Position numbers and translations under genes: made by a program
Shown: positions 21,719 through 36,165 of the stretch, one piece after another
Numbering within the stretch: position 1 is the stretch's first letter
Layout of the letters: every line of letters begins with the position of its first letter
Notes under the pieces: generated by a model
Databases searched by the model: none
Told to the model about the DNA's origin: nothing
The model's input: the letters and a program-made list of their open reading frames with translations, nothing else
From: an uncultured Lachnospiraceae bacterium
GTDB lineage: Bacteria > Bacillota > Clostridia > Lachnospirales > Lachnospiraceae
Direction: 5' to 3'
Assembly (NCBI GenBank): GCA_946554445.1
Contig: CAMNSD010000010.1
Coordinates: 1-64,000, forward strand
Length of the DNA: 64,000 bases

Positions 21719-22816
21719 GTGCAATTTATTATACTTGACAAGGATTTTCAGACAATGGGATCCATAAAGGTATTCAATACCCTGATGTGGCACAGACGCT
21801 ACTACAGCCCCGGCATATTTGAACTTCATCTTCCGGCTGAATATTTTGATCTGATAAATACCGGCCGTTATCTGTATAGGAATGACCGCACGGAATTAGG
21901 GGTTATCCGGGAAGTCAATTTTGCAAGGGGTGAGAAAAGCGAAAAAACAGCCTATTGTAAAGGGTTTTTTTCTGAACACTTGCTGAACAACGGCGTGATC
22001 TATCCTGTATTCAGCCGGACAGGAAAGCCGGATGCACTCTCCCACACCGTAGTTGACACATACCTGATCAATCCGGCTGACAATAAACGGAAAATAAACG
22101 CTGACATACGGCTGGGGAATCTGGAAGGGCTGGGAACTTCTATCACGCTACAGAATACCGGGGATGAAGTGGGAACAAAGCTGTATGAAGTTTTGCAGAC
22201 ACAAGAAATGTCACAGCGGCTTGTATTTGATTATCTTAAAAATACCCTGACATATGAAGTCTGGCAGGGTAAAGACCGCACTGACAATCAGACAGAAAAC
22301 AGCTGGGCGATCTTTTCAGATTCCTTCAGGAATATAAAAAACGCACAGTATCACCGTGATGAATCAGACTGTAAAAATGTGGCTTATGTGGCTGGTGAAG
22401 GTGAAGGGGCTGCCCGTATTGTGGTTGAGGTGGATGTCAGGTTAAGCCTGGATGAAGAACGGCGTGAACTGTTTGTTGATGCCCGCGATCTTCAAAAAAC
22501 TACGGAAAGCGTAACCTATACGGATGCACAGTACAGGGAAATGTTGCACCAGCGTGGGCTTGAAAAGCTGGCTGAATGTGCCGCCATTGAAAAGGTTGAT
22601 TCCGGCGTGGATCCGGCTGCTAATCTCATATATGGCAAGAATTTTGATTTAGGGGATCTTTGTACATACCGTTATAGTGACGTGAACATAGAATGTTCAA
22701 AGCGTATCACGGAAATACAGGAAGTGATTGAAGGATCCAAACAAACGCTGAATGTCATTTTCGGAATTGACGATGCAAAGAATTTTAAACAAATTTTTAG
22801 AAAGGAAATGAGGTAA
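21719..22816 (+). CDS. Baseplate/tail protein (ReqiPepy6 Gp37-like)
   Basis: A 365-residue protein resembling siphovirus ReqiPepy6 Gp37-like tail proteins, which sit at the tail tip and take the place of Tal. Typical features are an N-terminal MQFIILDKDFQTMGSIKVF, the FELHLPAEYF strand, a central SEHLLNNGVIYPVF region and the C-terminal NFDLGDLCTYRYSDVNIECS followed by RITEIQEVIE. It starts at GTG 21719, three bases after the Dit-like gene. It lacks an obvious peptidase or lysozyme domain. Confidence 0.8.
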   Translation: MQFIILDKDFQTMGSIKVFNTLMWHRRYYSPGIFELHLPAEYFDLINTGRYLYRNDRTELGVIREVNFARGEKSEKTAYCKGFFSEHLLNNGVIYPVFSRTGKPDALSHTVVDTYLINPADNKRKINADIRLGNLEGLGTSITLQNTGDEVGTKLYEVLQTQEMSQRLVFDYLKNTLTYEVWQGKDRTDNQTENSWAIFSDSFRNIKNAQYHRDESDCKNVAYVAGEGEGAARIVVEVDVRLSLDEERRELFVDARDLQKTTESVTYTDAQYREMLHQRGLEKLAECAAIEKVDSGVDPAANLIYGKNFDLGDLCTYRYSDVNIECSKRITEIQEVIEGSKQTLNVIFGIDDAKNFKQIFRKEMR

Positions 22817-23952: not shown

Positions 23953-26064
23953 ATGAATCAGGGGCAGACAATTTTTGACTTGCCACAGGCTGAAACTGTT
24001 CCGGCTGGCAGCCGTTATGTGGTGGAAATGGGCGATGGCACAGGTACAAAATCAGTCACACATGAGGATGTAGTCAAGGCCGTGGGCGGTGATCTTCCGC
24101 TGGGTGACACAAAAGACCTTGAAACGGTGGAAAAAGGTACTTTTGTGGCCGCTATCAATGAGATCAAAGAGCGGACAGACAAGGCATCCGGGGGCGCCGC
24201 TATCAGGGTAAAGACCGGGGATCCCGGTTTATATGGGCGCACGGTCATGGTAACGGATGGGGAAACCACACTACAGGGATCTATGTCATATACAGGTGAA
24301 TGTGTCATTTCCGGCGTTATCATGAATGGGAACCTGACAGTATCGGCTACCACAGAAGAAGGGGCAACAGATCAAGCGGTTGTGTATGTGTCGGCTTATG
24401 CAACATATGACGTACAGCTGGACACCAGACAGGCCTATAACTGGATCAATGTCACCACTTCCGAAGCATCGCTTTTTGATACAAAAGTGACCGCTTCCAA
24501 TGGTGAAGAAACGGCCACGGCTATGATCGGGAAAGACGGAACGGCCCGGATTAAATTCACGTTTTCCGGCACGGTTACGGTTACGGCTACCGATGGGGTG
24601 AACGTGGTCAGTGCCGCCGTGGACGTTTCCGGGGAAGTTTCTGGAAGCTATGATGTGGATCTACAGCTGTACAAGGTAACAGTTACCACACAGGAAGCAT
24701 CCCTTGAAAAACAGACTGTGACGCTGAAAAACGGCGGTTACACCAGAACGGCGGTTTTCAGTGAGGGAACCGCTACTATTGTATTTGACAGTAATTTCAT
24801 GGGTGAATGTCAGGTCACGGCAACGGACGGCATGAAAACCGGGAAAATGAAGTTCACAGCGGTTGCAGATACCCATGAATACAGCCTGACTTTAAAGTTA
24901 GGTACTATTTTCACGGCTTTGCTTGACCTTACAAAGTCCGATCCTGAAAAAATAGTAACCTATGCAGACGATGCTACAGGTATGCAGAAAAAGTTTTCAG
25001 CGTGGCGCAATCAGGAAATTTTCAAAAATTTGCACTTGTGTGTGCTGAAAGACGGGAAGAAGCTGTATGAACTGGATGATAACAACACCGCAAAGAAAAA
25101 AGACGGAACCGATGCAGACATCACTACACTGGGGAATGATGTCATGCTGGAACTTCCTGAACGGCTGGGCTATATGATTGAGTGGGTAATTCCCGGAAAT
25201 TCGCTTTTGAAAGTGTCCGTGACCAATGAAGCAGACAATGAAGCGTATGAATATGACGCTTTCAGCCTTGATTCATATAACGATTGTGACAGAATCTACA
25301 TCGGAACATTCAAAGGTCATTGTACCGGGAACAAAGCATATTCTTCTTCCGGGAAAGCGGTCACAGTATCACAGACAATAGACGCTTTCAGAACATGGTG
25401 CAGGGCAAGGGGTACGGGCTACCAGCAGCGCACCTATGGAAGCGTGAAGCTGATGCAATGCCTGTATATTATCAGCCACGGCACACTGAACAGTCAGGCG
25501 GCGGTTGGCACTGGTTACGTTGCATCCAGCCATTCAGCCGGGGTTAAGACTGGCGGTACTAATGCGTATGGTTTTGATTCTGAATTGATCAGGGCCAGCA
25601 ATCCGTCATACATGACTGACCAGAATCATCAGGTGAAATGTCTTGGCCTTGAAGATTTCTGGGGGAACTACTGGGAATTTGTGGATGGTCTTGTGTCCGA
25701 TGCTTCCCGGAATGTTCTGACGGCCAGATGTGCAAAGGATTTCAATACACAGGGATCCGGCTATGAGAACAACGGAAACGGCGGTGTGTCTGCTAATATC
25801 GGTAACTATATGAAACTTCCGCAGGGTGGAAGCAAGGCCGGCTTTACAGCCCGTGACGTATCGGGATCAGACAGCACATATTTCACGGATTATGCTGTTT
25901 TGTATGCGTCCTGTCTTGCTCTTTTCGGTGGTTATTGGGCTGATGCGCTTTCTGCGGGGGCTTTTCGGCTGTCTGTGCATATTGCCTTTTCTTTATCGTA
26001 TGCGAGTGTCGGTTGTCGCCTGATGTATATGCACAAGGAAGAAAAAGCAGACGCAGCGGCGTAA
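23953..26064 (+). CDS. DGR-diversified tail receptor-binding protein
   Basis: A 703-residue protein, the target of the adjacent diversity-generating retroelement. The N-terminus has a phage-particle attachment segment (residues 1-70). Three beta-rich, Ig-like repeats follow at about residues 75-310, each ending near TATDG-like turns. The C-terminal region from about residue 430 has the C-type lectin/formylglycine-enzyme-like fold used by DGR proteins (GLEDFWGNYWEFVDG). The last 60 residues contain the variable region (bases 25880-26021), closing with SVGCRL. Nineteen residues there differ from the template coding version, nearly all at Asn, Thr or Ser codons. It likely binds the host surface. 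The start follows AAAGTGAGGAA. Confidence 0.93.
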   Translation: MNQGQTIFDLPQAETVPAGSRYVVEMGDGTGTKSVTHEDVVKAVGGDLPLGDTKDLETVEKGTFVAAINEIKERTDKASGGAAIRVKTGDPGLYGRTVMVTDGETTLQGSMSYTGECVISGVIMNGNLTVSATTEEGATDQAVVYVSAYATYDVQLDTRQAYNWINVTTSEASLFDTKVTASNGEETATAMIGKDGTARIKFTFSGTVTVTATDGVNVVSAAVDVSGEVSGSYDVDLQLYKVTVTTQEASLEKQTVTLKNGGYTRTAVFSEGTATIVFDSNFMGECQVTATDGMKTGKMKFTAVADTHEYSLTLKLGTIFTALLDLTKSDPEKIVTYADDATGMQKKFSAWRNQEIFKNLHLCVLKDGKKLYELDDNNTAKKKDGTDADITTLGNDVMLELPERLGYMIEWVIPGNSLLKVSVTNEADNEAYEYDAFSLDSYNDCDRIYIGTFKGHCTGNKAYSSSGKAVTVSQTIDAFRTWCRARGTGYQQRTYGSVKLMQCLYIISHGTLNSQAAVGTGYVASSHSAGVKTGGTNAYGFDSELIRASNPSYMTDQNHQVKCLGLEDFWGNYWEFVDGLVSDASRNVLTARCAKDFNTQGSGYENNGNGGVSANIGNYMKLPQGGSKAGFTARDVSGSDSTYFTDYAVLYASCLALFGGYWADALSAGAFRLSVHIAFSLSYASVGCRLMYMHKEEKADAAA
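25880..26021 (+). repeat. DGR variable region (VR)
   Basis: Aligned to the template repeat with a constant offset of 251 bases and no gaps. Between 25888 and 26021 there are 25 differences, and every one is at a template adenine (A to G, C or T). No template C, G or T is changed. The 5' eight bases align to the template A-tract. The 3' end, GTTGTCGCCT, is identical in both copies and would be the site where cDNA integration begins (IMH-like). Confidence 0.97.
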
Positions 26065-26130
26065 ATAATATAGGCGGTGAAAGCATGACATAAGGTTGAT
26101 CACAGAATGAACCGCATGAAAAGAACAGAC

Positions 26131-26272
26131 AAAAAAAAGATTATACTAATTTGTATACGTCCTGTCTTACTATTTTCAGTGGTAATTGGAATAATGCACT
26201 TAATGCAGGGGCTTTTCAACTGAATGTGAATAATACCTTTTCTTTATCGAATGCGAATGTCAGTTGTCGCCT
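26131..26272 (+). repeat. DGR template repeat (TR)
   Basis: The adenine-rich, non-coding donor copy of the variable region, 67 bases after the target gene stop and about 150 bases before the reverse transcriptase. Read in the target frame it has AAT, ACT and AGT codons at the diversified positions (for example WNNALNAGAFQLN), the arrangement that gives the widest amino-acid choice on adenine mutation. An unbroken eight-A tract opens it. Confidence 0.97.
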
Positions 26273-26304
26273 ATTGTTTTCCAGCAATAGTATTTTTTTA
26301 GCAA

Positions 26305-26318
26305 GGTGAACCTTCACC
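26305..26318 (+). other. Palindromic hairpin in the DGR RNA downstream of TR
   Basis: GGTGAA, a CC loop, then TTCACC. It lies in the 147 bases between TR and the reverse transcriptase gene, which in studied DGRs is part of the structured template RNA that binds the enzyme and primes cDNA. The rest of 26319-26419 holds no ORF except the reverse transcriptase ribosome binding site region. Confidence 0.5.
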
Positions 26319-26419
26319 GCCGTGCCACTTGGCAAAACATAACAATTCCCGGATCTGTATTAGTAGCCAACAGGTGAAAGTTCAGGGGTGGAAAACATCA
26401 AAAAAAGGGCGGGTGCTAT

Positions 26420-27544
26420 ATGAAAAGGTATGGTGATATTTACCCTAAAGTTTGCACCATAGAAAACTTGCGGGAAGCACACGCCAACGCCAGAAAAGAC
26501 AAACTTTTCTATCAGGAAGTAAAAATGGTTGACGCTGATCCTGACAGCTTCCTAAAAGAAATTCAGGAAATGTTGCTGAATGAAACATATGAGATCAGCG
26601 CATCGGATTATGTAAAGAGCATAATAAACGACAAAGGAAAAGAACGGGAACTTGCAAAGCTGGCATATTACCCACACAGAATCATTCAGTGGGCGATCAT
26701 GCTACAGATCGAACCTGTTTTCATGGAAGTGTTCTGTTCCCATACTTGCGCTTCTATCAAGGATCGGGGAATCAGCAAGGCCCTTGATCTGGTGCAGGAA
26801 TATTTAAAGGACGTACCGGGAACACAATATTGCCTGAAAATAGACGTTTCAAAGTTCTATCCTAGTATTGACCATGAAATATTGAAGCAGCTGCTTGAAA
26901 GGAAGTTCAAAGACAGGCGGCTGCTTTCTCTTATGTTCAAAATCGTGGACAGTGTAGAAGGTTCAGGCGTACCCATCGGATCATACCTGTCACAGTACCT
27001 TGCTAACTATTATCTGGCATACTTTGACCACTACCTGAAAGAGGTCCTTCACTTGGAGTATGTTGTCAGGTATATGGATGACGTGATCATACTGTCAGAC
27101 AGCAAGGAAAAACTTCATGAAGTCAGAAAGCTGATGGATCAGTATTTGCAAACACAGCTGAACCTTCACCTGAAAGATAACTGGCAAGTGTTCCCGGTGG
27201 ATGCCCGTGGTATTGATTTTATAGGGTTCTGCTGTTTCCACGGTTTCACGCTGTTACGGAAACGGACATACAAACGCTTTAAGGCTGGTATGATACAGAT
27301 TCTTGAAAAGCAGGAAAACGGCCAGCTGATCAGCTATTCAGAATTTTGTTCAGCTAATTCATATTGCGGATGGCTGGATATGTGTGACGGGAACAGGCTG
27401 AAAGAAAAATACATTGTTCCTATTGTGCCGTCACTGGTACGGTACTATGAAGAAGTCATTGCTGCCGGGAAGAAAGACAAGGCGGCAAAGATAAGGAAAT
27501 ATAAAAAGAAACTGGAAAAGAAAGGACTGGTGAAAGCAGCATGA
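26420..27544 (+). CDS. DGR reverse transcriptase
   Basis: A 374-residue reverse transcriptase that copies the TR RNA with errors at adenines. It shows the RT motifs in order: YYPHRIIQW (domain 2), CLKIDVSKFYPSIDH (domain 3), GVPIGSYLSQYLANYYL with S191-Q192 (the DGR-type SQ motif of domain 4), YMDD at residues 218-221 (catalytic), and IDFIGFCCFHG (domain 6/7). A basic C-terminus (KIRKYKKKLEKKG) may hold RNA. No maturase, protease or integrase domain is attached. The gene lies in the tail operon and overlaps the next gene by four bases. No Avd gene is seen nearby. Confidence 0.96.
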   Translation: MKRYGDIYPKVCTIENLREAHANARKDKLFYQEVKMVDADPDSFLKEIQEMLLNETYEISASDYVKSIINDKGKERELAKLAYYPHRIIQWAIMLQIEPVFMEVFCSHTCASIKDRGISKALDLVQEYLKDVPGTQYCLKIDVSKFYPSIDHEILKQLLERKFKDRRLLSLMFKIVDSVEGSGVPIGSYLSQYLANYYLAYFDHYLKEVLHLEYVVRYMDDVIILSDSKEKLHEVRKLMDQYLQTQLNLHLKDNWQVFPVDARGIDFIGFCCFHGFTLLRKRTYKRFKAGMIQILEKQENGQLISYSEFCSANSYCGWLDMCDGNRLKEKYIVPIVPSLVRYYEEVIAAGKKDKAAKIRKYKKKLEKKGLVKAA

Positions 27545-27837: not shown

Positions 27838-27956
27838 TGAGCATGATGGCGAAGGTATACGCTGACCTGATCCGCAAAGGCAAGAAAACAATCAAAGATG
27901 TACCGAAGGAATTGCAAAAAGAGGTCAAGGCTATTCTGGCGGGTGACGAAAAATGA
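27837..27956 (+). CDS. CD1375-family small phage protein, copy 1
   Basis: A 39-residue peptide (MAKVYADLIRKGKKTIKDVP core, ending AILAGDEK) of the CD1375 family, small proteins found between tail and lysis genes in clostridial phages, function unknown. The ATG overlaps the preceding stop (TAATG). An in-frame second ATG (residues 3-4) gives the family-typical MAKVYA start and could be the true one. It was read directly from the sequence. Confidence 0.7.
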   Translation: MSMMAKVYADLIRKGKKTIKDVPKELQKEVKAILAGDEK

Positions 27957-28009
27957 TCCTGCTTCATGCCTTGCTTTTTTTAATACTGGGGAAAGGGGGT
28001 AAAAATGAT

Positions 28010-28138
28010 ATGGCTATTGTTTACGCTGTTCTGATCGTAAAAGGCAAGAAAACATTCGCTGACGTTCCGGCGAAGATTCAGGCACAGGTCAGGGAAGTCC
28101 TGATTGATATGGAACTTCCTGAACTGGCTGAAATCTGA
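28010..28138 (+). CDS. CD1375-family small phage protein, copy 2
   Basis: A 42-residue peptide starting MAIVYAVLIVKGKKTFADVP, clearly related to copy 1 (VYADLIRKGKKTIKDVP). The ATG at 28010 follows GAAAGGGGG with good spacing. A longer frame starting at 27953 would add 19 hydrophobic residues not found in copy 1, so it was not used. The pair looks like a local gene duplication that has since diverged. Confidence 0.7.
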   Translation: MAIVYAVLIVKGKKTFADVPAKIQAQVREVLIDMELPELAEI

Positions 28139-28180
28139 CGTTTTATCAGCCACATGGACAAATTATCAAACAGGTACATA

Positions 28181-30321: not shown

Positions 30322-31263
30322 TTGAAGATATCTTACAACAAACTGTTTGAGATTTTGGAACAAAGGAATATTACAAAAACAGAGTTAAGAGAAAATATAG
30401 GCATTTCTACTGCTACCCTTGCGAAATTATCCAAAAATGAACTGATAGCGATGAAAGTGATTGGGGATATTTGTGATTTTTTAAACTGTCAACCAGGAGA
30501 GATTATGGAACTGGAAAAAGAAGTTGATAAAACTACATTACTATATCGACTGCGGGAAGAGAAACAGATCAAATTAAAGGGTGGGATTTATCACCAGACA
30601 CAAGTGAAACTTGCATATAATTCTAATCATATGGAGGGAAGCAAACTCACAGAGGACCAGACAAGATATATTTATGAAACGAATACGATAGGATTAGAAA
30701 AAGAACCGGCTAATATAGATGATATTATAGAAACAGTAAATCATTTTCAGTGCTTTGATTATATTTTAGACTGTGCAGAAAATGTATTATCTGAAAACAT
30801 AATAAAAAAAATTCATCAGATATTAAAATCAAATACATCGGATAGTCGTTTGGAATGGTTTAACATTGGGGACTATAAACAACGCCCTAATATGGTTGGT
30901 GATTCAAAAACTACTCCGCCTGGCAGTGTGAAAAAGGAAATGCAACGATTATTATTTGAATATCAACAGAAGGAAACGATTGCTTTTGAGGACATTGTAG
31001 AATTTCATTACTATTTTGAAAAAATACATCCGTTTCAGGATGGCAATGGCAGGGTAGGGCGTTTGATAGTATTTAAAGAGTGTTTGAAACATAATATAAT
31101 CCCATTTATTGTGGAGGAACGGCATAAACTTTATTATTACAGAGGATTAAAAGAGTTTGAGAATGAGCGGGGATATTTGATAGATACTTGTTTATCTGCA
31201 CAGGATAAGTATGGTGAATTATTGGAGTACTTTGCAGAAGATGCAGAAGAATACAATTTGTAA
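30322..31263 (+). CDS. HTH-Fic domain protein
   Basis: A 313-residue protein. The N-terminal 65 residues are an XRE-like helix-turn-helix (FEILEQRNITKTELRENIGI, then STATLAKLSKNE). A Fic domain follows, with the class II inhibitory motif SNHMEG near residue 109 and the catalytic HPFQDGNGRVGR near residue 240. Fic enzymes usually move AMP from ATP to a target protein. The attached HTH suggests it also regulates transcription, perhaps its own, through the inverted repeat in its leader. It starts at TTG with AGAAAGGA at a nine-base spacing. Codon use is more AT-rich than in the phage genes, so this is likely a separately acquired cargo gene. Confidence 0.85.
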   Translation: MKISYNKLFEILEQRNITKTELRENIGISTATLAKLSKNELIAMKVIGDICDFLNCQPGEIMELEKEVDKTTLLYRLREEKQIKLKGGIYHQTQVKLAYNSNHMEGSKLTEDQTRYIYETNTIGLEKEPANIDDIIETVNHFQCFDYILDCAENVLSENIIKKIHQILKSNTSDSRLEWFNIGDYKQRPNMVGDSKTTPPGSVKKEMQRLLFEYQQKETIAFEDIVEFHYYFEKIHPFQDGNGRVGRLIVFKECLKHNIIPFIVEERHKLYYYRGLKEFENERGYLIDTCLSAQDKYGELLEYFAEDAEEYNL

Positions 31264-31269
31264 TTCCGT

Positions 31270-31389
31270 ATGATTGCAGTTGGGCAAAATGCTAATTTTA
31301 GGAGATTAACAGGGATGTATGCAGATGGAGATTCTGATAAAATAGTCTGCGTACTGGGCGATGAATATAATATAAGGAAATTTTATTGA
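31270..31389 (+). CDS. Possible 39-residue ORF after Fic (weak)
   Basis: An ORF seven bases after the Fic stop with no convincing ribosome binding site. It could be translated by read-through of ribosomes from Fic, or be a remnant of another gene (its tail VCVLGDEYNIRKFY looks protein-like). No family recognised. Confidence 0.2.
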   Translation: MIAVGQNANFRRLTGMYADGDSDKIVCVLGDEYNIRKFY

Positions 31390-31457
31390 AATGTGGTTTG
31401 AACTCAAATTTTTCATATACTAATATTAAAAATCAAAAGAAAAATGTTTTGAGTTAA

Positions 31458-31513
31458 ATATTTGCAAAAAAAATGCAAATATGATTGACAAAACAAAACA
31501 ATTAAAATATTAT
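31458..31513 (+). promoter_or_regulatory. Strong promoter with operator palindrome for the ATPase-HEPN pair
   Basis: A consensus promoter: TTGACA at 31485-31490, TATTAT at 31508-31513, spacing 17. Directly upstream, ATATTTGC at 31458-31465 and GCAAATAT at 31475-31482 form a perfect 8-bp inverted repeat with a nine-base spacer, ending three bases before the -35. This is the geometry of an operator or activator site. Bases 31390-31457 are AT-rich with nothing else recognised. Confidence 0.75.
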
Positions 31514-31542
31514 ATAGGTATAAATCGGGAGAGGTGACAAAG

Positions 31543-32793
31543 ATGCTGCTGGAATTTAGCTGTTCAAATCATCGTTCTATTAAAGAAGAAGTGAGATTTT
31601 CTATGATTGCAGGAAGCGACAATACATCAGAAGAACTCTTAAAAGGATTTGGCAATATTAGGGTTTTACGTTCTGCAATCATATATGGAGCAAATGGATC
31701 TGGAAAAAGCAATTTTATCAGTGCTTTGTCATTTATGAAAGGATTGGTAAGTAATAGTATTAACCATCAGCCGGGACAGGGGGTATTTCAGGCACCCCAT
31801 AAATTGAGCGCCGAAAAAACTCCAAGCGAATATAGCATTCAGTTTGTAAGGAATGACATAAGATATGCATATGGTTTTTCCGTGAAGGAAAATTTGATAC
31901 AAGATGAATATTTATATTATTTTCCTAATGGAAGGCAGGTAAAGATTTTTGAACGGGATGGAATGGTGATCAAACCCGGCGACAGATACAAAGGCGTATT
32001 TGATGTGAGTATTGGCATAGTGAAAGAAAACAGATTGTTTTTATCCTGTGCGGCCAATTATAGCAATGTAAAAGAAGTGGAAGAAGCGTTTCTTTTTTTT
32101 AACACAGATATTGTGGTGTACAATCCGGAGATTAATAACTGGACGGAGTATTCCATCGAGTTAATGCAGAGCAATAAGGCGATTAAGCAGATTTTTGTGG
32201 ATATCCTGCGGGCGCTAGGTACGGGGATTAAAGATGTAAAAGTAAAACTTGAGAAAATAAAGTTGGGGGAGTTAACACAGGAATTGCAGATACCTGATGT
32301 ACTGAAAGGTCTGATAGGGGGGCAGGAAGGGAACCGAATAGAAGCAAAGGTAATTTACGATCAATTTGAAGTGGATCTGATGGCAGAGGAGTCGGCGGGA
32401 GTGAAGCGTTTATTCCAGATGGTTTGCCCGATTCTTGATATTTTGAAAGAAGGAAAAATACTTATTTGTGATGAACTGGAGACTAGCCTGCATGAATCAG
32501 TAATTTCCCAAATTGTAAAGTTATTTCAACATTACGAAAAGGATAAGTTTGCCCAATTAATTTTTTCAACACATGATACAAGTTTATTGGATACTGATTT
32601 GTTCAGGCGTGATCAGGTGTGGTTTACGCAATTAAATATGGAGAGAGCAACGGATTTATATTCTCTTGTGGAGATTAAGAATGTCCGTAAGTCCGAAAAT
32701 CTGGAAAAGGGATATGTATCTGGAAAATATGGTGCGATACCTATGCTTAATAAAGCATTCTTTCAAGAATTGGAAGAAGGTATTTTAGGATAG
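31543..32793 (+). CDS. ABC-type ATPase (AAA_15/AAA_21), probable defence-module sensor
   Basis: A 416-residue OLD/RloC-type ABC ATPase. The N-terminus LEFSCSNHRSIKEEVRFSM is typical of the AAA_15 group. Walker A is GANGSGKSN (49-57), Walker B is LICDELE (D310/E311) and an H-loop STHD follows (H344). The interrupting middle region has no toprim or HNH motif, so no nuclease is fused. Its partner gene 11 bases downstream is a HEPN protein. ATPases of this group act as sensors or activators in several antiphage systems such as PARIS, RloC and OLD-like systems. ATG 31543 is preferred over GTG 31534, which lies within the ribosome binding site GGGAGAGG. Confidence 0.85.
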   Translation: MLLEFSCSNHRSIKEEVRFSMIAGSDNTSEELLKGFGNIRVLRSAIIYGANGSGKSNFISALSFMKGLVSNSINHQPGQGVFQAPHKLSAEKTPSEYSIQFVRNDIRYAYGFSVKENLIQDEYLYYFPNGRQVKIFERDGMVIKPGDRYKGVFDVSIGIVKENRLFLSCAANYSNVKEVEEAFLFFNTDIVVYNPEINNWTEYSIELMQSNKAIKQIFVDILRALGTGIKDVKVKLEKIKLGELTQELQIPDVLKGLIGGQEGNRIEAKVIYDQFEVDLMAEESAGVKRLFQMVCPILDILKEGKILICDELETSLHESVISQIVKLFQHYEKDKFAQLIFSTHDTSLLDTDLFRRDQVWFTQLNMERATDLYSLVEIKNVRKSENLEKGYVSGKYGAIPMLNKAFFQELEEGILG

Positions 32794-32804
32794 GGGGGTA
32801 CTGT

Positions 32805-33503
32805 ATGGAAGATAGAAATCTTGACTTAATGGAAAGAAATGAGGGTACAAGAGAAAAATTTCGCACGGAAGTTAAAAGGTTTGAGTTGGATCAGATAATG
32901 CAGCATTTTACAGAGACAATGCAGGCTATAAAGGCCCAGTTTCCCGTGGCAGATGAACTGATTGAATCCGGAAAAGTCACAGAGGGAGAAAATATCTGGC
33001 GGGCGCAGGTAATTTTTCTTGCAAGTGCTTTTGATTTCTATATGCATGAACTGACGAAATATGGGCTGTGTGAAATTTATGCAGAGAATTGGGGGAGAAC
33101 GGATAAATATGAGAATATCCAAGTAAAAATGAAAGTGATAGAGGTAGCATTAAAAGAAGGAGGGGATATAGATTGGTTTCTTGAATATATTAACGGGCAT
33201 TATGGAAATATTACGATGGTATCATATAAATCGGTAAAAAGTCAGCTTAAATTATTGGGGTTGAATTTGACGAGTATTGCAGCAAGAGCGTTCCATCAAA
33301 TAGGCAGAACAGAAAAAACAGGAGATAAGCTGAAAAGACGTCTGGATGAATTGTTTGAAAGAAGAAATATTATTGCCCACCAAACAGATAGGGCTCATAC
33401 CGATGCACAGATTAACAGCATTACAAAAGAGATTGTACAAGAATTTGTATCTGATGTTGAAAAAATTGTAAATGCTATCGACGTAGAAACAAAAAATATG
33501 TAA
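32805..33503 (+). CDS. HEPN-domain RNase-like protein (RiboL-PSP-HEPN-like)
   Basis: A 232-residue helical protein with a HEPN catalytic motif R187-N-I-I-A-H192 (Rx4-6H) in a helix near the C-terminus. The region ENIWRAQVIFLASAFDFYMH (about residues 64-83) resembles the first helices of the RiboL-PSP-HEPN group. HEPN proteins with this motif are metal-independent RNases used in toxin-antitoxin, CRISPR and abortive-infection systems. It lies 11 bases after the ABC ATPase gene under the same promoter, so it is the likely effector of a two-gene module. Activity is inferred from the motif only. Confidence 0.78.
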   Translation: MEDRNLDLMERNEGTREKFRTEVKRFELDQIMQHFTETMQAIKAQFPVADELIESGKVTEGENIWRAQVIFLASAFDFYMHELTKYGLCEIYAENWGRTDKYENIQVKMKVIEVALKEGGDIDWFLEYINGHYGNITMVSYKSVKSQLKLLGLNLTSIAARAFHQIGRTEKTGDKLKRRLDELFERRNIIAHQTDRAHTDAQINSITKEIVQEFVSDVEKIVNAIDVETKNM

Positions 33504-34561: not shown

Positions 34562-36165
34562 ATGACGAGTAAATTAAAATACCATAAAAATTATACCGAA
34601 TTTGGCGAGCCTTATCAACTGGTTTTGCCATTAAGTTTGGAAAGCCTGGTTCCTGAAGATGAATCTGTCCGACTGCTGAGCCACGAACTGGAGGAATTAG
34701 ATTACAGCTTGCTGTACAGAGCTTACTCTGCCAAAGGCAGAAATCCGGCAGTGGACCCAAAGACCATGTTCAAGATCCTGACCTATGCTTATTCACAAAA
34801 CATCTATTCCTCGAGAAAGATCGAGACTGCATGCAGACGTGACGTCAACTTCATGTGGCTGTTAGCTGGTCAGAAAGCACCTGACCACAGCACCATCGCC
34901 CGCTTCCGTACAGGATTTCTGGCAGATGCCTGTGAGAGCCTTTTCTATCAGATGGTAAAAAGGCTGGAACAGGCAGATGAATTATCAAAGGAGACGGTAT
35001 TCATAGACGGGACAAAGTTGGAAGCCTGTGCCAACAAATATACTTTCGTGTGGAAAAAATCTGTTGGGAAGTGGGAAGAAAAGATGTTCCGAAAGATACA
35101 GGACGCCGTGCAACTCCTGAACCACGAATACATACAGGATTTTTCAGTTGGTGAAGAAACAAGGACACAGGACATACAAAAGGTATCCAGATTTTTGGAA
35201 GAAAAGTGTAGGACAGATGGAGCGGTCTTTGTCCATGGACGAGGGAAAAGAAAGAGCAGGAACCAGAGGTATCTGGAACTCTTTCGCAGATTTCTTGAAC
35301 GACAGACAATCTATGACTGGCATACAGCAAGTTTTCAGGGGCGGAACAATTACTGTAAGACAGATCCGGATGCCACCTTTATGCACATGAAGGACGACCA
35401 TATGCGTAACGCCCAGCTAAAACCGGGATACAACGTACAGATCGGTGTGGACAGCGAGTACATCGTTGCGGTGGATATTTTTCAAGACGGAAACGATGTA
35501 TGGACGCTGGTGCCGTTCCTGAAAAGCATGGAAGAAAAACTGGGATTCCGGTATCCAAGCGTAACAGCGGATTCCGGTTATGAAAGTGAAGAGGGCTACA
35601 GCTTTTTAAGAGAGAACAAGCAGAAGCCTTATATAAAACCCCAGACATATGAGAAGTGGAAAAACGCAGCTTTAAAAGGGACATCAGCAAACGTGAAAAC
35701 ATGGCATACAATGAAGAAGAGGATGTTTATACTTGTCATGCCGGAAGAAGCCTGAATGCCCAATACATAAAGAAGCAGAAAAGCAAAAGCGGCTACGAAC
35801 CCCAGGTGACCGTATACGAATGCGAGGATTGTACCGGCTGCCCTTACAAAGAGAAATGTACAAAGTCAAAGAAGAACAAACGCCTGTACGTTTCCAAAGG
35901 TTTTATGGAGAAACGTGAGGAATCCTACCGGAACGTCCTGAGTGAAACTGGCACAAGGTACCGCATGAACCGTTCCATTCAGGTAGAGGGAGCCTTCGGG
36001 GTGCTGAAAAACGACTATGAGTTCCAAAGGTTTTTGCTTCGTGGAAAGACCAAGGTAAAACTTGAGGTTCTCTTGTTGTGCTTTGGTTATAACATAAATA
36101 AACTGCACGCAAAGATCCAGGGTGACAGGATGGGAAGCCATCTGTTTCCCCTGAAAACCGCATAA
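34562..36165 (+). pseudogene. IS1182-family transposase, frameshifted
   Basis: Two overlapping frames together give a full IS1182 transposase (about 534 residues). The first (34562-35755) holds the N-terminal DUF772-like region (SARFRTG-like ARFRTGF and YAYSQNIYSSRKIETAC) and the DDE core (ETVFIDGTKLEACANKYTF; VTADSGYESEEG). The second (from about 35656 to 36165, -1 frame) holds the zinc-ribbon-like CPYKEKC and the ending YGIxRSIQVEGAFGVLKND-type DDE glutamate region. The frames meet at a run of five A at 35660-35664. A sixth A would restore one frame, so a single-base deletion or sequencing error is the simplest cause. It is probably inactive. Confidence 0.85.

What the first reader, a model, noticed from the sequence alone, without database searches (positions are those of the whole stretch)
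25880..27544. Complete DGR in the prophage tail module, with fully adenine-specific TR/VR differences
Seen: VR (25880-26021) and TR (26131-26272) align without gaps at an offset of 251. All 25 differences between 26139 and 26272 are at TR adenines, with none at C, G or T. A reverse transcriptase with YMDD and the SQ motif follows. TR in the target frame has AAT/ACT/AGT codons exactly at changed sites, altering 19 residues of a lectin-like C-terminus. Known: this is the signature of diversity-generating retroelements, best studied in Bordetella phage BPP-1. Inference: the phage varies its receptor-binding protein and the VR has been rewritten recently, as no other mutations have accumulated.
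Basis: partly seen in the sequence, partly recalled or inferred. Interest (0 to 1): 0.9.

Follow-up and report, generated by a model that had tools for sequence, protein, structure and literature searches.

The report
Active protein-diversifying retroelement in prophage tail
A virus lodged in a gut bacterium carries a known kind of mutation machine that keeps rewriting the tip of its tail protein; it is real and recently active, and beside its template lies a conserved folded RNA that may tie together several RNA families listed without a stated role.

Summary
The finding is right. VR (25888-26022) and TR (26139-26273) align without gaps; 25 of 25 differences in the first 134 positions fall at TR adenines. 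A metagenomic copy of this phage (L002, 8980 bp) differs from the window at 17 positions: 13 lie in VR, all at TR adenines, and TR is identical. This is strong evidence of recent A-specific rewriting. The target's C-terminal domain best matches solved DGR variable proteins, TaqVP and then BPP-1 Mtd. So it is an ordinary DGR, a new member of a known kind. Two BPP-1 hallmarks were not found: Avd, and the inverted repeat after VR. The best extra result lies between TR and RT: a covarying structured RNA, just over the Rfam RT-17 threshold, 7-102 nt 3' of TR in 80 of 80 loci where both were mapped. In 10 DGRs whose TR lies downstream of RT, its RGUA/GAA core still follows TR in 9, against 1 of 10 before RT. 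It is most likely part of the template RNA, not a leader of the RT gene. Whether that link is already published I could not check.

The parts
23953..26064 (+). Target gene: 703-aa tail protein; its C-terminal domain carries the VR
   Evidence: phrog_5302 tail protein, E 2e-42; C-terminal profile of 35 relatives matches PDB 5vf4, E 3e-12; model matches TaqVP and Mtd
25888..26022 (+). Variable repeat (VR)
   Evidence: Gap-free match to TR at offset 251; 25 of 25 differences in 25888-26021 at TR adenines
26139..26273 (+). Template repeat (TR)
   Evidence: identical in L002; the A8 run 26131-26138 before it is uninformative
26317..26414 (+). Structured RNA between TR and RT (match of model R1; Rfam RT-17 at 26318-26405)
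   Evidence: RT-17 40.7 bits against gathering score 40.4; R1 76.9 bits, but the window is one of the 39 training sequences; covariation
26323..26334 (+). Small hairpin UGCC-ACUU-GGCA of that RNA
   Evidence: 4 pairs, 3 with changes on both sides, 100% of cells paired in 39 sequences
26354..26386 (+). Main helix of that RNA with internal loop AGUA (26362-26365) opposite GAA (26376-26378)
   Evidence: 8 pairs, 7 with changes on both sides; GUA and GAA invariant in 39 of 39
26420..27544 (+). DGR-type reverse transcriptase, 374 aa
   Evidence: RVT_1; phrog_1423; 30% identity to BPP-1 brt; best solved relative 8ub7

Best explanation
This is a recently active diversity-generating retroelement of a siphophage-type prophage. 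Inferred mechanism, by analogy with BPP-1: TR is transcribed together with the structured RNA that follows it; that RNA recruits the RT and sets the start of cDNA synthesis at the TR 3' end; the RT misreads adenines; the cDNA replaces VR and changes residues of a lectin-like tail protein. Shown here: A-specific VR variation between near-identical natural copies with an unchanged TR, a DGR-type RT, a match of the target to known DGR variable proteins, and a covarying RNA that goes with TR. Inferred: priming, homing, receptor binding, and that the system works without Avd.
For: 25 of 25 TR/VR differences at TR adenines. L002: 13 VR differences, all at TR-A sites, against 4 in the other 8845 positions; TR identical. 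7 pairs of near-identical loci: 108 of 274 TR-A sites, 3 of 626 other VR sites, 0 of 900 TR sites differ. AAT/AAC codons fill 959 of 3862 TR codons in the target frame, 53 of 3860 and 45 of 3853 in the other frames. Target fold. RT. RNA covariation and place beside TR.
Against: No Avd found in the own genome or in 33 of 33 virus records of relatives, many of them fragments. No inverted repeat like that of BPP-1 after VR: best perfect stem 4 bp; 7 bp or more in 7 of 85 related loci, 2 in one shuffle. The structure model is of medium confidence, mean pLDDT 66.1. R1 does not match the BPP-1 spacer. No forward-strand promoter-like site was found in 25800-26450, so transcription of TR is assumed to come from upstream. 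No reads, cDNA or RNA data were available.
Confidence: 0.92

Rival explanations
1. The structured RNA is a cis-regulatory leader of the RT gene and has no part in templating.
For: In the window and in 86 of 86 mapped hits with an RT position, it lies 75-195 nt before the RT start. Rfam names such families only RT-n.
Against: In 10 loci with TR downstream of RT, the core pattern (short loop) lies within 250 nt 3' of TR in 9 and within 250 nt 5' of RT in 1 (expected from shuffles 0.3 and 0.4). With the looser pattern it is 9 against 3. RT-14 begins 1-7 nt after TR in 5 of 9 such loci, 1 of the 5 above the gathering score. In BPP-1 the Rfam family Phage_DGR fills nearly the whole spacer after TR.
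Confidence: 0.12
2. The element is a relic: VR was diversified long ago and no longer changes.
For: No cell or phage reads were examined. L002 and the window share many VR bases, so part of the TR/VR difference is inherited.
Against: 13 VR differences against 4 in the other 8845 positions between window and L002, all 13 at TR-A sites. The RT frame is open.
Confidence: 0.05
3. The repeat is an assembly or duplication artefact.
For: The assembly is a draft of 87 contigs.
Against: L002, a separate record, has the same layout. The own genome holds one such place: a TR/VR pattern finds just these two copies. 110 of 132 sequences searched give a candidate pair of this type at a loose threshold, 99 at a stricter one.
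Confidence: 0.01
4. Avd is supplied in trans by another DGR of the host, so the system is not truly independent of Avd.
For: In one host genome (that of L083, RT 80% identical) two bAvd genes lie beside other, more distant RTs on other contigs, not beside the relative of this DGR.
Against: The window's own genome, 96.1% complete, shows no bAvd at all, with the same model ringing in BPP-1 and in 4 of 6 host genomes. A diverged Avd below the model's reach, or one in the missing 4%, is not excluded.
Confidence: 0.15

Closest known systems
Bordetella phage BPP-1 DGR (mtd, avd, TR, brt)
   Same: Order target, TR, RT; A-specific differences; RT homologous (30% identity); target C-terminus of related fold; structured RNA between TR and RT
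   Different: BPP-1 has avd between VR and TR and an 8-bp GC stem with GAAA loop after VR; neither was found here. Its spacer belongs to Rfam Phage_DGR, not RT-17, and model R1 does not match it
Thermus aquaticus DGR variable protein TaqVP (PDB 5vf4)
   Same: Best match of the target's C-terminal profile and model
   Different: 15% identity in the structural alignment; the window protein is a phage tail protein of 703 aa
Rfam RT-17, RT-18, RT-14 and Phage_DGR RNAs
   Same: The four consensus lines printed by the tool each show a small hairpin followed by A-rich bases, then a helix with RGUA opposite GAA
   Different: Listed as four families with no clan. The window passes RT-17 only just and is below threshold for RT-18. 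BPP-1 itself reads AUUA where the Phage_DGR consensus has AGUA
DGRs of Faecalibacterium prophages (PMC11792537, abstract and passages)
   Same: DGRs of gut Bacillota prophages with adenine-specific variation, seen there in reads
   Different: RT of Faecalibacterium phage FP_Epona only 28.8% identical; the paper was not compared further

Membership tests
Diversity-generating retroelement | TR/VR pair with differences confined to TR adenines | tested here: met
   25 of 25, p 2e-19
Diversity-generating retroelement | RT of the DGR type close to TR | tested here: met
   26420-27544; phrog_1423; BPP-1 brt relative; GSYLSQ and YMDD seen in the translation (motif meaning recalled)
Diversity-generating retroelement | VR at the 3' end of a target gene with C-type-lectin-like domain | tested here: met
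   VR ends 13 codons before the last codon; TaqVP and Mtd matches of a medium-confidence model
Diversity-generating retroelement | VR varies between close relatives while TR stays constant | tested here: met
   L002 and 6 further pairs
Diversity-generating retroelement | Mutagenised cDNA and replacement of VR observed | not testable with these tools
   No reads or experiments at hand
BPP-1-type DGR | Accessory protein Avd | tested here: not met
   PF22296 absent from the own genome and from 33 of 33 virus records of relatives; rings in BPP-1. Not a defining feature of DGRs at large: 62% co-occurrence per PMC8934634 (passages)
BPP-1-type DGR | GC-rich inverted repeat of 7-10 bp after VR (as described in PMC3240598, passages) | tested here: not met
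   Best perfect stem within 60 nt is 4 bp; BPP-1 control gives 8 bp
Rfam RT-17 RNA | Score at or above the gathering threshold | tested here: met
   40.7 against 40.4 bits, a narrow pass
Rfam RT-17 RNA | Base pairs kept by compensatory change | tested here: met
   On my own alignment of 39 spacers: 10 of 12 pairs with changes on both sides

The most novel reading that the evidence does not exclude
Rfam families RT-14, RT-17 and RT-18 and the BPP-1 family Phage_DGR are one RNA superfamily: the 3' domain of the DGR template RNA. Its core is a small hairpin, A-rich bases, then a helix with an RGUA/GAA internal loop (AGUA/GAA is what I recall as the consensus of the bulged-G, loop-E or sarcin-ricin module). 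It occurs in DGRs with Avd (three cyanobacterial loci, BPP-1) and in those without (this one), so this RNA, rather than Avd, may be the constant recruiting and priming part of DGRs.
Probability: 0.6. Interest if true: 0.55.

Novelty: new member of a known kind. Interest (0 to 1): 0.38.

Why it matters
As a DGR it adds one well-supported, naturally varying case in gut bacteria, and it shows A-specific variation in a lineage with no detectable Avd or target hairpin. If the RNA reading holds, it gives a role to Rfam families whose names say only that an RT is near. It also offers a way to find DGRs without the RT: the model found one whose RT is 29% identical. And it makes testable which RNA part starts mutagenic cDNA synthesis where Avd is missing.

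Tried and rejected
Avd by PF05635: nothing rang in the controls, so PF22296, named by a scan of BPP-1 Avd, was used. A second target VR in the own genome: a TR/VR pattern found only VR and TR, and the target domain as protein found itself and TR. Close DNA relatives in the phage collection: none. RT search of 98 kin genomes at 1e-40: 5 matches, the window's own and four at 32-39% identity. BPP-1 spacer with my model: no match. A hairpin straddling the TR 3' end as a general priming device: it folds so in the window and some near relatives but not in many others, so it is not claimed. The bulged-G reading of AGUA/GAA is recalled; alignment columns 61 and 95 co-vary as A-A 16, G-G 13, A-C 6 and other 4 of 39 (0 of 5000 shuffles reach the MI), which does not settle the register.

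Literature. Some searches ran (one search failed). In them, no paper held both a DGR term and RT-17, and the phrases RT-14 RNA, RT-17 RNA and RT-18 RNA had no occurrence. The papers likeliest to make the link are not held: Weinberg 2017, Handa 2025, Handa 2018, Handa 2021, Wu 2018. I cannot say that the link is unpublished. Seen as passages only: PMC12875486, PMC8144416, PMC11792537, PMC3240598, PMC8934634. All other papers were seen in listings only.

Rows dropped before counts: L001, the own copy. Of 102 loci or window with an RT position, 20 were skipped for spacers. The 82 spacers gave 68 distinct; 5 of these lacked the simple hairpin pattern; of the 63 left, 39 were put in A1. Of 10 near-identical pairs, 3 were fully identical and not counted. 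L132 and a second, weak hit in L069 were left out. TR/VR pairs were found with A-tolerant scoring, so the family total (2070 of 2138 differences at A in 95 pairs) leans that way.

In this one I corrected the loop consensus to RGUA, added that BPP-1 itself deviates, added the weak transposase hit, placed the Avd genes of G034, and added a control for the 5' side of RT. Odds of the novel case are unchanged; confidence in the best explanation is set at 0.92.
Full report
Observation. VR and TR align gap-free at offset 251. In 25888-26021 against 26139-26272, 25 of 134 positions differ, all at TR adenines (35 of 134 positions are A; p 2e-19), with products G 14, T 6, C 5. A 26th A-type difference is at 26022/26273. 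Eighteen residues differ between the TR translation and VR, not 19.

Setting. The window begins at base 1 of a 142-kb contig of a 4.39-Mb genome that is 96.1% complete. Terminase, portal and minor capsid genes, scaffold, major head and tape-measure genes, Dit and a Gp37-like protein come before the element, holin and endolysin after it. From about 36.5 kb on, host-type genes follow: nicotinate phosphoribosyltransferase, a histidine kinase, an IlvD-type dehydratase and a class I tRNA synthetase. I read this as a prophage whose left part is cut off by the contig end. Among the proteins scanned, no integrase was named; the one integration-class hit is a weak transposase match at 34562-35755. The closest named relative (RT 95%) lies in a Lachnospiraceae genome with MGBC in its title, which I recall as a mouse gut catalogue.

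Activity. L002, a viral contig of 8980 bp, matches the window over its full length with 17 differences. Thirteen lie in VR, all at TR-A sites, and TR is identical; the other four lie at 21841-21861. VR against the rest gives Fisher p 3e-21; 13 of 13 at A gives p 5e-9. Among the loci with a TR/VR pair, ten near-identical pairs were found, 3 of them fully identical. The 7 informative ones differ at 108 of 274 TR-A sites in VR, 3 of 626 other VR sites, 0 of 900 TR sites and 175 of 18917 flank sites. In 97 mapped targets, AAT/AAC codons fill 959 of 3862 TR codons in the target frame but 53 of 3860 and 45 of 3853 in the other two.

Target and RT. The C-terminal profile of 35 relatives finds 5vf4 (E 3e-12). 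The AlphaFold2 model (mean pLDDT 66.1, pTM 0.73) is best matched by TaqVP chains of that entry (E 2e-8 to 6e-8) and then by BPP-1 Mtd variants (E 1e-3 to 1e-2). The single sequence alone found nothing in the PDB set. The RT's best solved relative is 8ub7, E 4e-31 (I recall it as BPP-1 bRT, the tool says only reverse transcriptase); it is 30% identical to annotated BPP-1 brt. What the lectin-like domain binds is not known.

Missing hallmarks. Avd (PF22296) was not found in the own genome (its built-in controls did not ring) nor in 33 of 33 virus records of relatives. The same search finds it in BPP-1 and in 4 of 6 host genomes reached through loci. In three of these, all cyanobacterial by title, it lies just before the RT. 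In the fourth, the host of L083, both Avd genes lie beside other RTs on other contigs, and not beside the DGR related to this one. Many virus records are fragments. In the window fewer than 80 nt separate the target stop codon from TR, which leaves no room for avd there. PMC3240598 proposes an inverted repeat after VR as a conserved requirement (passages). Here the best perfect stem within 60 nt is 4 bp; 7 bp or more occurs in 7 of 85 loci, against 2 in one shuffle. DGRs without Avd as such are not new: PMC8934634 gives 62% co-occurrence.

The RNA. Rfam places RT-17 at 26318-26405, between TR and RT, just over its threshold. RT-17 also passes in 9 of 13 related loci searched, L002 included. 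An alignment of 39 spacers gives 12 pairs, 10 with changes on both sides. Of the cells, 95.7% pair; the covariation score is 0.605 against a shuffled mean of 0.242 (0 of 500 reach it), and sliding by 1-3 columns brings it to 0.14 or less. GUA and GAA of the internal loop are invariant in 39 of 39. The model R1 hits 88 of 89 sources of the family at E<=1, 39 of them training sequences; the miss, L060, has 61 nt before RT. The RNA starts 7-102 nt 3' of the TR end in 80 of 80 loci where both were mapped. In 77 genomes of the genus R1 finds 3 places at E<=0.001. Besides the window, both have RT and an A-specific pair: one is the kind already known (RT 80%; 25 A-type differences, 1 other), the other has an RT 29% identical and 18 of 18 A-type differences. 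In the own genome, two weaker places (E 0.1 and 0.8) show neither RT nor TR/VR within about 3 kb.

Leader or template part? In 10 loci TR lies downstream of RT. The loose RGUA/GAA pattern occurs within 250 nt 3' of TR in 9 of 10 (1.1 expected) and within 250 nt 5' of RT in 3 of 10 (1.1 expected). With a short loop it is 9 of 10 against 1 of 10 (0.3 and 0.4 expected). The pattern was chosen after seeing the family. Rfam RT-14 begins 1-7 nt after TR in L104, L106, L115, L109 and L110, 5 of 9 searched; only L104 is above the gathering score. R1 itself hits L106 66 nt 3' of TR (E 0.004), but it reaches only 2 of 32 distant sources at that level, and not BPP-1. In BPP-1 the Rfam family Phage_DGR covers 2355-2487, nearly the whole stretch between the annotated TR end 2350 and brt at 2495. 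PMC12875486 says that this spacer recruits bRT-Avd and that an internal adenine in it primes cDNA (passages). The printed consensus lines of RT-14, RT-17, RT-18 and Phage_DGR each show a small hairpin followed by A-rich bases, and further on RGUA opposite GAA inside a helix; BPP-1 itself has AUUA there. I read this as one RNA architecture that belongs to TR. It is a comparison by eye across four models, not one model that finds all four.

Verdict. A genuine, recently active DGR: a new member of a known kind, of moderate interest. The more novel part is the RNA. Its link to TR is well supported here; its unity across families and its newness in print are not settled.

Noticed in passing
21841-21861: Outside VR, the only 4 differences between window and L002 lie within 21 bp of the Gp37-like gene (two silent, E to D, T to N); a tiny mosaic patch or local recombination.
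   Followed up: partly
25951-25953 and 25972-25974: Two VR codons are TCT in the window and AGT in L002, both serine, from TR codon AAT (sequence; translations): the same residue reached by different base changes, perhaps selection.
   Followed up: no
L146:5100-6766: Another DGR in a genome of the same genus (G049), with RT 29% identical, found by the RNA model alone; its target ORF is 949 aa.
   Followed up: partly
L053, L062, L069, L075, L079: In these relatives one TR matches two or more VR-like places, so the DGR may have more than one target.
   Followed up: no
26272-26291: CTATTG and CAATAG form a possible hairpin just at the TR 3' end, also in some near relatives; it could place a primer there.
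   Followed up: partly
27838-28139: Two tiny ORFs after the RT operon look alike by eye (both read like K.GKK.F/I.DVP); not tested by any search beyond the sequence.
   Followed up: no
30322-33503: Fic-domain protein with an HTH (30322-31263) and an AAA ATPase (31534-32793) followed by a protein of unknown family, downstream of the lysis genes; possibly a prophage-borne defence or toxin module.
   Followed up: no
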